Positions 25,901-31,900 of a stretch of 64,000 nucleotides of DNA are shown one piece after another. Source of the stretch: Liolophura sinensis. Its lineage: Eukaryota; Mollusca; Polyplacophora; Chitonida; Chitonidae. The first letter of the stretch is position 1; the number at the start of each line of letters is the position of its first letter. The DNA is taken from the NCBI RefSeq assembly GCF_032854445.1, contig NC_088306.1:3656373-3720372 (forward strand), read 5' to 3'. The notes under the pieces are model-generated. The model ran no database searches. It was not told the origin of the DNA and was given only the letters and a program-made list of their open reading frames with translations. The translations under genes and the position numbers were made by a program.

Positions 25901-28900
25901 CCTCAACCTTTTAGCACATAAAAGAGCAACTTATTGACCGCGAAATCCGTGAAAATTAGTTCCACGCGAAAATTAAGTACATCACAGTATTCAAAAAGTG
26001 TACGGTAATTGTTGGCTTGACTGTTTCGCCAAGTAGACAGCTGTAGCTCGCACGTACATGTGCATTGTTCAATAGAACAAGAGTAACTTCCCTTGGAGAG
26101 AGAATGCACAATGTAGACGCGTTATTCTTATCCAACAGAAAAACAGAAGAAAGACTTTCATGTCAATATAGCGCTTCTCAAAGCAAGAAACCAAACGTTA
26201 AGAAAGTTACCTGCATTTCAATATGCCTGGGATTATCAATGTACTTCTCAATCAACATACGATCATCTCCAAAGCTCGACTTTGCTTCTTGTGACGACAG
26301 TCGGAAAGCGCTCCTAGAAACGGTAAGAATATGACTCTATTATGTGCCCCTACTACTCAGACTCAAAAGGCATGACGCGAGCCTTGCATGATTGAATGAT
26401 TTAAATTACAAAACAGACCCCCAGTCAAATTACTGATTTTTGATTGGCTACTTCTTTAATAATATAAATAATAATATATAATAATATGTATATATATACA
26501 GACAATTTGAATGAAAGCTACTTACACCATAGTCTCATCAACTCTCTTCAATGGTTCATTAAATATGTGATAGACTCGTGTTCACTGATTTGTTAGATAT
26601 ATCTGATTGACAGGTAATATACACGACAAGCCCCACCATTAGTCACACTGGAATTCACTGATTGGTTTGATTTCTCTGAATGACAGCTAATTTACATGAC
26701 AAGCCCCACCATTAGTCACAATGGTGTTCACTGATTGGTTTGATTTCTCTGAATGACAGCTAATTTACATGACAAGCCCCACCATTAGTCACACCGGGGT
26801 TCACTGATTGGTTTGATCTCTTTGAATGACAGCTAATTTACATGACAAGCCCCACCATTAGTCACACTGGGGTTCACTGATTGGTTTGATCTCTCTGAAT
26901 GACAGCTAATTTACATGACAAGCCCCACCATTAGTCACAATGGTGTTCACTGATTGGTTTGATTTCTCTGAATGACAGCTAATTTACATGACAAGCCCCA
27001 CCATTAGTCACACTGGGGTTCACTGATTTGTTAGATATATCTGAATGACAGTTAATATACATGACAAGCCCCACCATTAGTCACACCGGGGTTCACTGAT
27101 TGGTTTGATTTCTCTGAATGACAGCTAATTTACATGACAAGCCCCACCATTAGTCACAATGGTGTTCACTGATTGGTTTGATTTCTCTGAATGACAGCTA
27201 ATTTACATGAGAAGCCCCACCATTAGTCACAATGGTGTTCACTGATTGGTTTGATTTCTCTGAATGACAGCTAATTTACATGACAAGTCCCACCATTAGT
27301 CACACTGGGGTTCACTGATTGGTTTGATCTCTTTGAATGACAGCTAATTTACATGACAAGCCCCACCATTAGTCACACTGGGGTTCACTGATTGGTTGGA
27401 TCTCTCTGAATGACAGCTAATTTACATGACAAGCCCCACCATTAGTCACAATGGTGTTCACTGATTGGTTTGATTTCTCTGAATGACAGCTAATTTACAT
27501 GACAAGCTCCACCATTAGTCACACTGGGGTTCACTGATTTGTTAGATATATCTGAATGACAGTTAATATACATGACAAGCCCCACCATTAGTCACACTGG
27601 GGTTCACTGATTGGTTTGATTTCTCTGAATGACAGCTAATTTACATGACAAGCCCCACCATTAGTCACACTGGTGTTCACTGATTGGTTTGATTTCTCTG
27701 AATGACAGCTAATTTACATGACAAGCCCCACCATTAGTCACACTGGGGTTCACTGATTTGTTAGATATATCTGAATGACAGTTAATATACATGACAAGCC
27801 CCACCATTAGTCACACTGGTGTTCACTGATTGGTTTGATTTCTCTGAATGACAGCTAATTTACATGACAAGCCCCACCATTAGTCACACTGGTGTTCACT
27901 GATTTGTTAGATATATCTGAATGACAGTTAATATAGATGACAAGCCCACCATTAGTTACATTGGTGTTCACTGATTGGTTGGACCTACATGTACATAATC
28001 TGACAAACAGCTACATGTAATTTCCATGACAAGCCCAACCACTAGACGCACTGGCGTTCACTGATTGGTTGAATCTATATGACTGACAATTTGACTGATA
28101 ATTTACATAACAAGCCCCACCTCGCCTCCTTGTCATTCCAGGCAATCCTCATCCCCTTCCCACCTCCTCCAGCAGAGGCCTTTATCATCACAGGGTACCC
28201 TGAAATAGGGAGATGAAACAAGATGCTGAATAGCTACATCTGCCTTAGACACAAGGAGAAGTTGGGAAGACCTGGAATCCGAGTCAGATCACATCAAAGA
28301 CCTTAAGAACATGTTGGTTCACTGCAAGGTTGCAGCAAGGAAACAGGACTGGCTGGCAGTGTGTCAGCATACTGTGACAGGGTGGCCTTGTGTCAGTATA
28401 ATGTGACCGGTTTGCCTAGTGTAAATATAATGTGACAGGGTGGCCCAGTGTCAGTATGATGTGACAGGTTGGCCTAGTGTCAGTATAATGTGACTGGTTG
28501 GCCCAGTGTCAGTATAATGTGACAGGTTGGCCCAGTGTCAATATAATGTGACTGCTGCTGGTTGGCCCAGTGTCAGTATAATGTGACCGGTTGGCCTAGT
28601 GTCAGTATAATGTGACAGGTTGGCCCAGTGTCAGTATAATGTGACAGGTTGGCCCAGTGTCAATATAATGTGACTGCTGCTGGTTGGCCCAGTGTCAGTA
28701 TAATGTGACCGGTTGGCCTAGTGTCAGTATAATGTGACAGGTTGGCCCAGTGTCAGTATAATGCGACAGGGTGGCCCACTGTCAATATAATGTGACTGGT
28801 TGGCCCAGTGTCAGTATAATGTGACAGGTTGGCCCAGTGTCAATATAATGTGAGTGCTGCTGGTTGGCCCAGTGTCAGTATAATGTGACCAGTTGACCTA

Positions 28901-31900
28901 GTGTCAGTATAATGTGACCGGTTGACCTAGTGTCAGTATAATGTGACAGGTTGGACCAGTGTCAGTTTAATGCGACAGGTTGGCCCAGTGTCAGTATAAT
29001 GTGACAGGTTGGCCCAGTGTCAGTTTAATGCGACAGGTTGGCCCAGTGTCAGCATAATGTGACTGCTGCTGGTTGGCCCAATATCAGTATGACGGTGTCA
29101 TGTCTGGTCTTTTCGGCATGATATTTCAGTGGTGGCAATAATTTGGCAGCATGGACTCTCTGCCACAATCAGACACAATATTTGTATGCAGAAAGAATGA
29201 CTCTTCATCGTCACAGGATTGAAAGAGTTTTATGAATGGACCAAAGAAAATGTTTGCAATTAACTTTCACAAAACATTCCTCCTACGGTGGGGACATAAG
29301 AATGACTCGGCATCAGGTTTTACTGGATTGCTGTATTACCTCTGCCAAAGGAGGTTATGAATTTCCCTGCATTTACTTCTCTGTCTGTCTGTCTGTCTAT
29401 CAGTAACAATTCGGATCAGCTTCACACAGTGGTTAGCATCCTGCACAACCCCATCATGGCCAGAAATCATGCTGACCTTACCTTTGGTGGCGATGTGTTT
29501 ACTCGTGGCCTACTGACTACTGTAAACATGCTAAAACTCACCTATTTCGTTGGCCAGCTTCACACAGTGTTCAGCATCCTGCACAACCCCATCATGGCCA
29601 GGAATCATGTTGACCTTACCTTTGGTGGCGATGTGTTTACTCGTGGCCTACTGACTACTGTAAACATGCTAAAACTCACCTATTTCGTTGGCCAGCTTCA
29701 CACAGTGGTCAGCATCCTGCACAACCCCATCATGGCCAGGAATCATGTTGACTTTAGCTTTGGTGGCGATGTGTTTACTCGTGGTCTACTGACTACTGTA
29801 AACACACTAAAACTCACCGATTTCGTTGGCCAGCTTCACACAGTGTTCAGCATCCTGCACAACCCCATCATGGCCAGAAATCATGCTGACCTTACCTTTG
29901 GTGGCGATGTGTTTACTCGTGGCCTACTGACTACTGTAAACATGCTAAAACTCACCTATTTCGTTGGCCAGCTTCACACAGTGTTCAGCATCCTGCACAA
30001 CCCCATCATGGCCAGGAATCATGTTGACCTTAGCTTTGGTGGCGATCCGTTTACTCTCGATTTTGTCCCCCATGGCATTAATAGCGGAGCTGCTGGGGCC
30101 GATAAACTCCACACCAACCTCAGCCTGGTAAGCAGAGATGAGATGATAAATTTAGTTTTGTTTGACTGTTTTTGGTTTCCTTAAGTCATAAATAAACAGA
30201 CCTTCATTTTTGTTTTAGAGCAGCTACGTAATTGCCACACCCCTTGCAGAAGACGAAGGGTGCGATTTGCACACCTCTATTCAGACTCCCCAGATTCTTG
30301 CTTATATCAGAATTGAGTTATTAGCACACCTAAATTTTGTTACATGAGAGTGGAGGTGTGGGAGTGTAGTAGCATGTCTAAAAGTGCTACAGTATGTCTA
30401 GAAGTGTAATAGCATGTGTAATAGTGTAATAACATGTGTAATAGTCTTACGGTATGTGTAATAGTCTTATGGTATAGGTAATAGTCTTATGACATATGAA
30501 ATAGAATGTGTAATAGTACAGTAGCATGTGTAATAGCATGTGTAATAGTGTAATAGCATGTCTAATAGTCTTATGGCATGTCTAATACTTTTATGGCATG
30601 TTTAATAGTCTTGTGGCATATGTAATAAACTTATTGCATATTTAATAGTCTTATGGCATATGTAATAAAATGTGTAATATTGTAATAGCATGTGTAATAG
30701 TGTAACTGCATGTGTAACAGCATGTGTAATAGTGAAACAGCATGTGTAATAGTGCGACAGCACATGTAATGGTGCAATAATATGTGTAATAGTGTAATAG
30801 CATGCCTCAAATTGGAAGGCCGGAATTAAAAGGAAGCTTCACAAAAATCACACATTCAAGCCAACCTAGATTTAAGAGGAAACAGTCCACCAAACTGAGA
30901 AAAGCATGTATCAGAAATGTATATGTATCAATATCAATGTGTTCCCTGAAGGTGTACTAGTACTTAGTAAACAATAAGTCATTAAAAAACATTTCAAAAG
31001 AAAGAATGACACACCCCTGAAAAGTTGAAGAACATCCGAATAAGAAGAGTATCAAAACACAAATGTGAATACCTACCAGTCTGGCAGCAAACACAGTGTT
31101 TTCTGAGAGAAACCCATAGCCAGGATGTACCTTCAAAAGTGGAGACAAAACACCTCTGTCAACTCAAATTAATGACTGTCAGACATAACTGGTACATTCG
31201 AAGTCAAACACTCTGGTTAGAAGAAAGTTTATGATCAGTGAGACTTACATGTAGTATTACATTTTGCCTGAAAAGTTCACTTGTATATAAATGTCACAAA
31301 ATATCACTTTTGCTGCTGAAACTTGCAATTTTTCAGTCAGGATATCAACCTAGCTTCCAAGCAAACCTCAAACACAGTTCTAAAATCAACAGGGCTTTCA
31401 GAATCTGGCAAAATGAGTAAGTCAAGGGTGAAAGTTTAATACCATAGTGGGCAGGTGACCCAACGGGTGGAAATTGTGACGAAAACAATTTGTCCCTACC
31501 TTATCTGTGATTCTCGATTGCCAGTGTCTGATCAGGTGGGTTGAAATGTTGACATACACGTCAGAGCTACAGGCCACACCCAAAAGGGGTACATGAGATT
31601 TACACCCTGCACAGCTGAATTACTGCACAGAATGACGCCATTTTTATATGCGATGCTAAATTTAAACCCTGCGCAGCTAAATCACTACCTCGGCTGATGT
31701 CCTTTTCCTATGTGAGGCCGCATTCTGTGGCGTGTCAGGACGTCACGCCACAATACCAGCGCTGTATGCAGTTGACATAGCTACCATGACTTTTTCTTAG
31801 CTTTACAGATACGTGAGACTGGCTTCTATTTGATAAATGTTGTTGGGACAAAATTGTTATCGGCATATCCGTTGAGAAGGGTATATCGGAATTTAAACCC

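What the first reader, a model, noticed from the sequence alone, without database searches (positions are those of the whole stretch)
26580..30124. Four PCCA introns have tandem arrays seeded exactly at a 5' splice site
Besides exons 17 and 19, the donor of exon 6 (138-bp unit with ~100 exon bases, 4 copies) and of exon 7 (73-bp unit starting at G|GTGGGG, ~19 copies) each head an array. In all four the array lies on the intron side of the donor it copies. Random slippage would not be expected to pick splice donors four times in one gene. Possible causes: duplication tied to transcription or R-loops at exon ends, or selection or tolerance for extra donors. I know of no described class of repeat with this rule.
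Basis: partly seen in the sequence, partly recalled or inferred. Interest (0 to 1): 0.85.

Follow-up and report, generated by a model that had tools for sequence, protein, structure and literature searches.

The report
Repeats grown from gene splice donors
In this mollusc, the junction where an exon ends and an intron begins is sometimes copied again and again into the intron; such repeats were first named in amphioxus, and in the genes sampled here they sit at exon ends more often than at exon starts.

Summary
The arrays are real: four PCCA donors head a tandem array on the intron side (138, 73, 67, 87 bp units). The class is described: amphioxus papers call tandem copies of exon-intron boundaries "mirages". 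This genome is a mollusc's.

I tested the rule on a sample: 12 genes found as E. coli orthologues, plus PCCA. Copies cross the junction at 14 of 212 donors and 2 of 212 acceptors (P 0.004; without PCCA 11 of 194 and 2 of 193, P 0.022). By tandem-repeat calls, 13 donors and 2 acceptors are crossed; random placement in the same introns predicts 4.6 of each. PCCA alone proves little (2 by that count, 3 with exon 19; about 1.0 expected). The donor bias goes beyond PCCA, on a modest sample.

"Exactly at the donor" fails: the unit takes in 0 to 101 exon bases, in no fixed register. Intron-side position is expected, since read-through meets a stop within 225 bp in 14 of 14.

Best reading: minisatellite duplications kept at donors because the upstream-most donor wins, and mostly lost at acceptors. 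The excess over random placement is not explained.

The parts
29956..30124 (-). PCCA exon called 6; donor GAAATAG|GTGAGT at 29956|29955
   Evidence: spliced alignment to Paracoccus PccA, reading, Pfam and PDB matches of joined exons
29417..30056 (-). 138-bp tandem array, 4.6 copies; unit holds 101 exon bases, the donor and the intron start
   Evidence: TRF; edge at -101; junction copies at +138, +276, +414, 95-100% identical
28121..28199 (-). PCCA exon called 7; donor GGCGAG|GTGGGG
26580..27980 (-). 73-bp tandem array, 19.2 copies, unit begins at G|GTGGGG; abuts the donor, essentially no exon bases
   Evidence: TRF; copies of the intron start found by probe
27981..28120 (-). degenerate first copies between the 73-bp array and the donor
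   Evidence: read in the sequence; probe matches start one base before the donor
15958..16060 (-). PCCA exon called 17; donor GTCAAG|GTAAGA
15527..15990 (-). 67-bp tandem array, 7 copies, 33 exon bases in the unit
12298..12396 (-). PCCA exon called 19; donor ATGCAG|GTGAGT
   Evidence: the aligner ran 11 bp further (to 12287), the donor was set by hand to the GTGAGT at 12297
10856..12081 (-). 87-bp tandem array, 14.4 copies, holding copies of the exon end and of the donor
12082..12224 (-). 143-bp interspersed repeat between the array and the exon
   Evidence: blastn within the window: 20 further matches, both strands
3837..3985 (+). 2 x 74-bp duplication spanning an ACCEPTOR of a Peptidase S28 gene; the second copy joins the exon, the first runs into a stop

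Best explanation
These are mirage-type minisatellites: tandem duplications whose unit happens to span an exon-intron boundary, in a genome whose introns are rich in minisatellites (about 30% of non-exon sequence over the first 11 genes). The true exon keeps the first copy; the rest become intron, so the intron grows from its 5' end. They are kept at donors because, when equal donors compete and the exon is defined across itself, the donor nearest the upstream acceptor is used, so extra donors further down are ignored. At acceptors the spare copies lie upstream of the true site, where competing 3' splice sites are on the whole preferred, so such arrays are mostly removed by selection. Shown here: the arrays, their junction-crossing copies, the donor-acceptor difference in the sample, the excess over random placement. 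Inferred: that the first donor is the one used, and that selection causes the asymmetry. Not explained: why donors exceed random placement two- to threefold; an exon anchor that cannot be lost and can re-seed the array is my guess.
For: Crossing arrays: 14 of 212 donors, 2 of 212 acceptors; without PCCA 11 of 194 and 2 of 193. By gene, donors exceed acceptors in 8 and the reverse holds in 1; 4 of 13 have neither (counted; sign test 0.039). Arrays that only abut an exon are less one-sided: 7 at donors, 5 at acceptors. Donors heading arrays are stronger than average (mean percentile 0.69 for 15, P 0.018; scores, test). In human minigenes with two identical strong donors 52 nt apart under exon definition only the upstream one was used (PMC9225289, passages); competing 3' sites prefer the upstream one overall (section 9). 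In amphioxus, Adh3 data and globin RT-PCR suggested that mirages do not disturb splicing (PMC3087553, passages). Some introns are almost all array: a PFAS intron of 4,030 bp has 81 bp outside arrays.
Against: Tolerance alone predicts no more donor arrays than random placement, yet 13 are seen against 4.6 (5.9 by a more generous count). Abutting arrays, which copy no splice site across the junction, also exceed expectation (7 and 5 against 2.57 each). PMC9225289 concludes that under exon definition the site closest across the exon is favoured, which for acceptors is the downstream, true copy; it reports the upstream 3' preference as reduced there, so the acceptor half of my argument is the weaker one. 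It also ties upstream-donor choice to long introns; here array-free intron length does not differ (455 against 527 bp, 184 introns). The donor 9-mer is slightly better kept in copies than the rest of the unit (11 of 14 arrays), which pure tolerance does not predict. No RNA data. Without both PCCA and ACSSb the contrast is 8 against 2, two-sided P about 0.11 (my arithmetic).
Confidence: 0.55

Rival explanations
1. Coincidence: arrays are scattered at random in array-rich introns and some fall on donors.
For: 31% of random intron points (506 of 1650) have a nearby copy crossing them, against 12 of 187 donors (6.4%) in the same call; array occupancy falls towards both splice sites. PCCA alone is not significant.
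Against: Against placement of the same arrays within their introns, 13 donor-crossing arrays are seen where 4.6 are expected (P 0.001; 0.008 with a more generous count), and donors differ from acceptors (P 0.004).
Confidence: 0.18
2. Mutational targeting: transcription, R-loops or the 5' splice site itself provoke duplication at exon ends.
For: Donor excess over random placement without PCCA (11 against 3.6); donor-crossing arrays are somewhat younger (93 against 89% matches, 12 against 127 arrays, P 0.04).
Against: The junction lies anywhere in the unit (exon fraction 0.30-0.96 in 13 arrays, KS against uniform 0.16); arrays abut acceptors (5) nearly as often as donors (7); 126 other intron arrays carry donor-like motifs no more in sense than in antisense (7 against 8).
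Confidence: 0.15
3. Selection for extra donors, for example as U1 binding sites.
For: GT kept in 163 of 169 copies that cover the whole donor, in 11 arrays (summed; the three ACSSb arrays were not in that call); in one PFAS array 58 of 58 copies keep CAG|GTAAGA (donor window 0.998 against 0.932 for the unit, rank 1 of 68 with ties); donor window above the unit mean in 11 of 14 arrays, Wilcoxon 0.006, mid-rank test 0.046.
Against: In 10 of 14 arrays the donor window's mid-rank fraction is 0.37 or more; copies are not independent because arrays homogenise; base composition was not controlled; arrays away from boundaries are not enriched in donors.
Confidence: 0.07
4. Intron gain: the arrays created these introns by duplicating AG|GT in exons.
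For: Proposed for amphioxus globins (PMC3087553, passages).
Against: The exon part is less than the whole unit in 13 of 13 arrays measured, for example 101 of 138 bp, so the units also hold sequence from the intron side; intron age was not tested.
Confidence: 0.03

Closest known systems
Mirage minisatellites of amphioxus (globins BflGb6 and BflGb9, Adh3; PGBD5; TnC as cited)
   Same: Tandem repeats that copy an exon-intron boundary; units of 10 to about 160 bp; AG/GT signals in many copies; splicing suggested to be undisturbed (passages).
   Different: Other phylum (mollusc); a donor bias counted on a sample (14 of 212 against 2 of 212), while the amphioxus reports show both boundaries; longer arrays, up to about 59 copies in PFAS and 74 in ACSSb by the alignment.
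Ordinary intronic minisatellites of the same genome
   Same: Same introns, overlapping ranges of period and copy number.
   Different: Non-crossing arrays have shorter periods (median 27 against 59.5) and no sense-strand excess of donor motifs.

Membership tests
mirage minisatellites | tandem repeat whose unit spans an exon-intron boundary | tested here: met
   3 of 4 PCCA donors by junction probes; the 73-bp array only abuts the donor, so not met for that one
mirage minisatellites | both 5' and 3' boundaries can be affected | tested here: met
   2 of 212 acceptors in the sample and one S28 acceptor in the window
mirage minisatellites | splice signals present in many copies | tested here: met
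   GT in 163 of 169 copies covering the donor, 11 arrays
mirage minisatellites | regular splicing not disturbed | not testable with these tools
   no RNA data; only that read-through would meet a stop in 14 of 14
mirage minisatellites | length polymorphism, somatic instability | not testable with these tools
   one assembly, no reads
mirage minisatellites | occurrence in cephalochordates | tested here: not met
   the genome holds an eight-unit hemocyanin gene of the molluscan kind; the taxon is where the class was named, not part of what it is

The most novel reading that the evidence does not exclude
5' splice sites are recurrent nucleation points of minisatellites: the exon end acts as a protected anchor from which arrays grow into the intron, making donor-anchored expansion a main route of intron lengthening in this mollusc and filling introns with dozens of intact decoy donors that the splicing machinery must ignore, or uses.
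Probability: 0.3. Interest if true: 0.78.

Novelty: new member of a known kind. Interest (0 to 1): 0.58.

Why it matters
It carries a curiosity reported gene by gene in amphioxus to a second phylum, at about 1 donor in 15 of this sample, and attaches a rule (donors over acceptors) that links repeat growth to splice-site choice. Introns with tens of identical donors in a row are natural experiments on how a splice site is chosen, and a visible way for introns to grow. They are also a hazard for gene annotation.

Tried and rejected
Querying the PDB with a one-frame translation of 27700-30200 gave nothing, since the exons lie in different frames. Rows dropped: in PCCA, five exon calls in weakly conserved stretches (19559-19516, 15914-15893, 14677-14632, 13940-13915, 10213-10162) were dropped by eye, and three exon ends were set by hand (first exon start, 19331 to 19300, 12287 to 12298). 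The AARS2 exon wholly inside an array (17952-18036) fell to the score threshold; it would have added one donor and one acceptor. ACO acceptor 20567 (one weak copy 2.9 kb away) and PFAS donor 27227 (one weak copy 1.0 kb away) counted but fell out under the 1-kb limit. One search used a hand-made, uneven list of dropped exons; searches replaced it with one threshold (alignment score 30; at 45 the counts are 13 of 201 against 2 of 200).

The two acetyl-CoA synthetase genes were added after the first results were known (10 genes plus PCCA: 12 of 187 donors, 3 of 187 acceptors, Fisher 0.032; 10 against 4.0 expected), to add power; three of the final 14 come from one of them. Not every hit was fetched: a second aconitase-like and a second OGDH-like locus and the other acetyl-CoA-synthetase-like loci were left out. 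The probe list (14) and the TRF list (13) share 12: GLDC and PCCA exon 19 are probe only, one weak phosphorylase row (15 bp x 2.5, 7 exon bases) is TRF only.

Rejected: that long introns favour donor arrays; the length difference vanishes once array bases are removed. The first expectation (2.5) ignored intron lengths and is superseded. The 126 'other' arrays still include the PCCA exon-19 array, the AARS acceptor array and the AARS2 array, so that set is not free of boundary arrays. Exon fractions mix TRF edges and probe limits and are approximate. Searches used some values copied by hand. Literature: searches listed no title or abstract on boundary arrays in molluscs; of the papers listed there I opened two (PMC3087553, PMC3902484, passages only) and not, for instance, the Conus intron paper PMC3862624 or the earthworm paper PMC12783039. 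The founding paper PMC117041 is not held, so I know it only through PMC3087553.

Full report
What is there. PCCA was mapped on the minus strand by spliced alignment to a Paracoccus PccA and by reading; joined exons match Pfam biotin carboxylase domains and, best of all PDB chains, the mitochondrial propionyl-CoA carboxylase alpha chain. Probes of 80 bp centred on each junction find copies that cross the junction at exons 6, 17 and 19; at exon 7 the copies begin one base before the donor. A 143-bp interspersed repeat lies between the exon 19 array and its exon.

Whose genome. The window lies in a 609-Mb genome. Eight matches to the hemocyanin beta-sandwich family lie in a row on one strand of one contig, and one unit's best PDB matches are hemocyanins of 3,303-3,408 residues and KLH1, which I recall as molluscan. 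I conclude a mollusc; the species is not known to me.

Prior art. [quoted passage not shown] PMC3902484 (passages) adds PGBD5 and cites TnC. So the class is described. My searches listed no mollusc report of it; most listed papers were not opened.

The sample. The genome is not given as a file, so I chose eight large E. coli enzymes before seeing any genomic sequence outside the window and one hemocyanin locus, and searched for orthologues, then one more, Acs, after the first results. Genes fetched: MTR, GLDC, two carbamoyl-phosphate-synthase genes (called CPS and CAD here), PFAS, a phosphorylase, an aconitase, two alanyl-tRNA synthetases, OGDH, two acetyl-CoA synthetases; names are by the E. 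coli query only. A spliced aligner written for this, which allows only GT or GC and AG intron ends, gave the exons. At score 30 or more: 222 exons, 212 donors, 212 acceptors in 13 genes with PCCA.

The counts. Donors with junction-crossing copies within 1 kb, 14 of 212: MTR (C6:5281614), GLDC (C7:7890114), phosphorylase (C6:3255573), aconitase (C2:19368874), OGDH (C1:6706634), PFAS three (C8:1369800, 1364888, 1356274), PCCA three, ACSSb three (C23:208188, 193122, 182809); positions are my conversion. Acceptors, 2 of 212: AARS and PFAS. Fisher 0.0035, binomial 0.0042. Without PCCA: 11 of 194 and 2 of 193, binomial 0.022. The aconitase array showed itself in the protein search alone, as a ladder of partial exon matches. 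ACSSb is on a short contig of 379 kb. Nine of the 14 come from three genes.

Against chance. Placing each TRF array at random within its own intron gives 4.59 expected crossings per boundary type; observed 13 at donors and 2 at acceptors. Without PCCA: 3.59 expected, 11 and 2 observed. Counting non-redundant TRF rows raises the expectation to 5.94 (4.78 without PCCA), P 0.008 and 0.010. For PCCA alone the expectation is about 1.0 and 2 are seen by the same count, 3 with exon 19. On the other side, 506 of 1650 random intron points have such copies, far more than donors do (12 of 187), and arrays thin out towards both splice sites: donors are not where most arrays are; they are where arrays are less excluded than at acceptors.

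Register. Exon fractions of the unit run from about 0.30 to 0.96 in 13 crossing arrays (exon 19 left out), not distinguishable from uniform. Arrays that abut without crossing occur at 7 donors and 5 acceptors, against 2.57 expected at each. This does not look like a start at the splice site itself, but it does say that array edges gather at exon edges of both kinds, which I do not explain.

The copies. In 11 arrays GT is intact in 163 of 169 copies that cover the whole donor. A wraparound alignment over the whole unit shows the donor window better kept than the unit mean in 11 of 14 arrays, but ranking very high in few, above all one PFAS array with 58 of 58 copies intact. The row for the 73-bp PCCA array aligned no copies and was left out of the test. 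Base composition was not controlled. I take this as a hint only.

Mechanism. Past the true donor, translation meets a stop after 1 to 225 bp in 14 of 14, so use of later copies would truncate the protein; that the first donor is used is inferred. PMC9225289 (passages, section 9) shows in human cells that of two identical strong donors under exon definition only the upstream one is used. For competing 3' sites it reports an overall preference for the upstream one, significantly reduced under exon definition, and concludes that sites closest across the exon are then favoured. Spare donors downstream are thus harmless, while spare acceptors upstream are at risk of use, though less clearly so under exon definition. 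The account fits the asymmetry and the stronger-than-average donors. It does not by itself give more donor arrays than random placement; an anchor effect or targeting must be added, and I cannot choose between them here.

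Noticed in passing
window 3837-3985: A 2 x 74-bp, 98% matching duplication spans the acceptor of the last exon of a Peptidase S28 gene: a boundary array at an acceptor beside PCCA.
   Followed up: yes
window 12082-12224 and 20 other places in the window: An interspersed repeat of about 143 bp in both orientations, one copy lying between the exon-19 array and its exon.
   Followed up: partly
G000:C8, PFAS intron from 1364888: An intron of 4,030 bp with only 81 bp outside arrays; 58 of 58 copies covering the donor keep it.
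   Followed up: partly
window 46000-64000: A gene on the + strand that looks like USP9X (recalled resemblance, not tested); TRF lists no array after 45245, unlike PCCA next to it.
   Followed up: no
window 29480-29900: Three of four intron copies of the exon 6 end read AAAGGTAAGG where the exon reads AAAGCTAAGG, so they hold a further donor-like site that the exon lacks (read).
   Followed up: no
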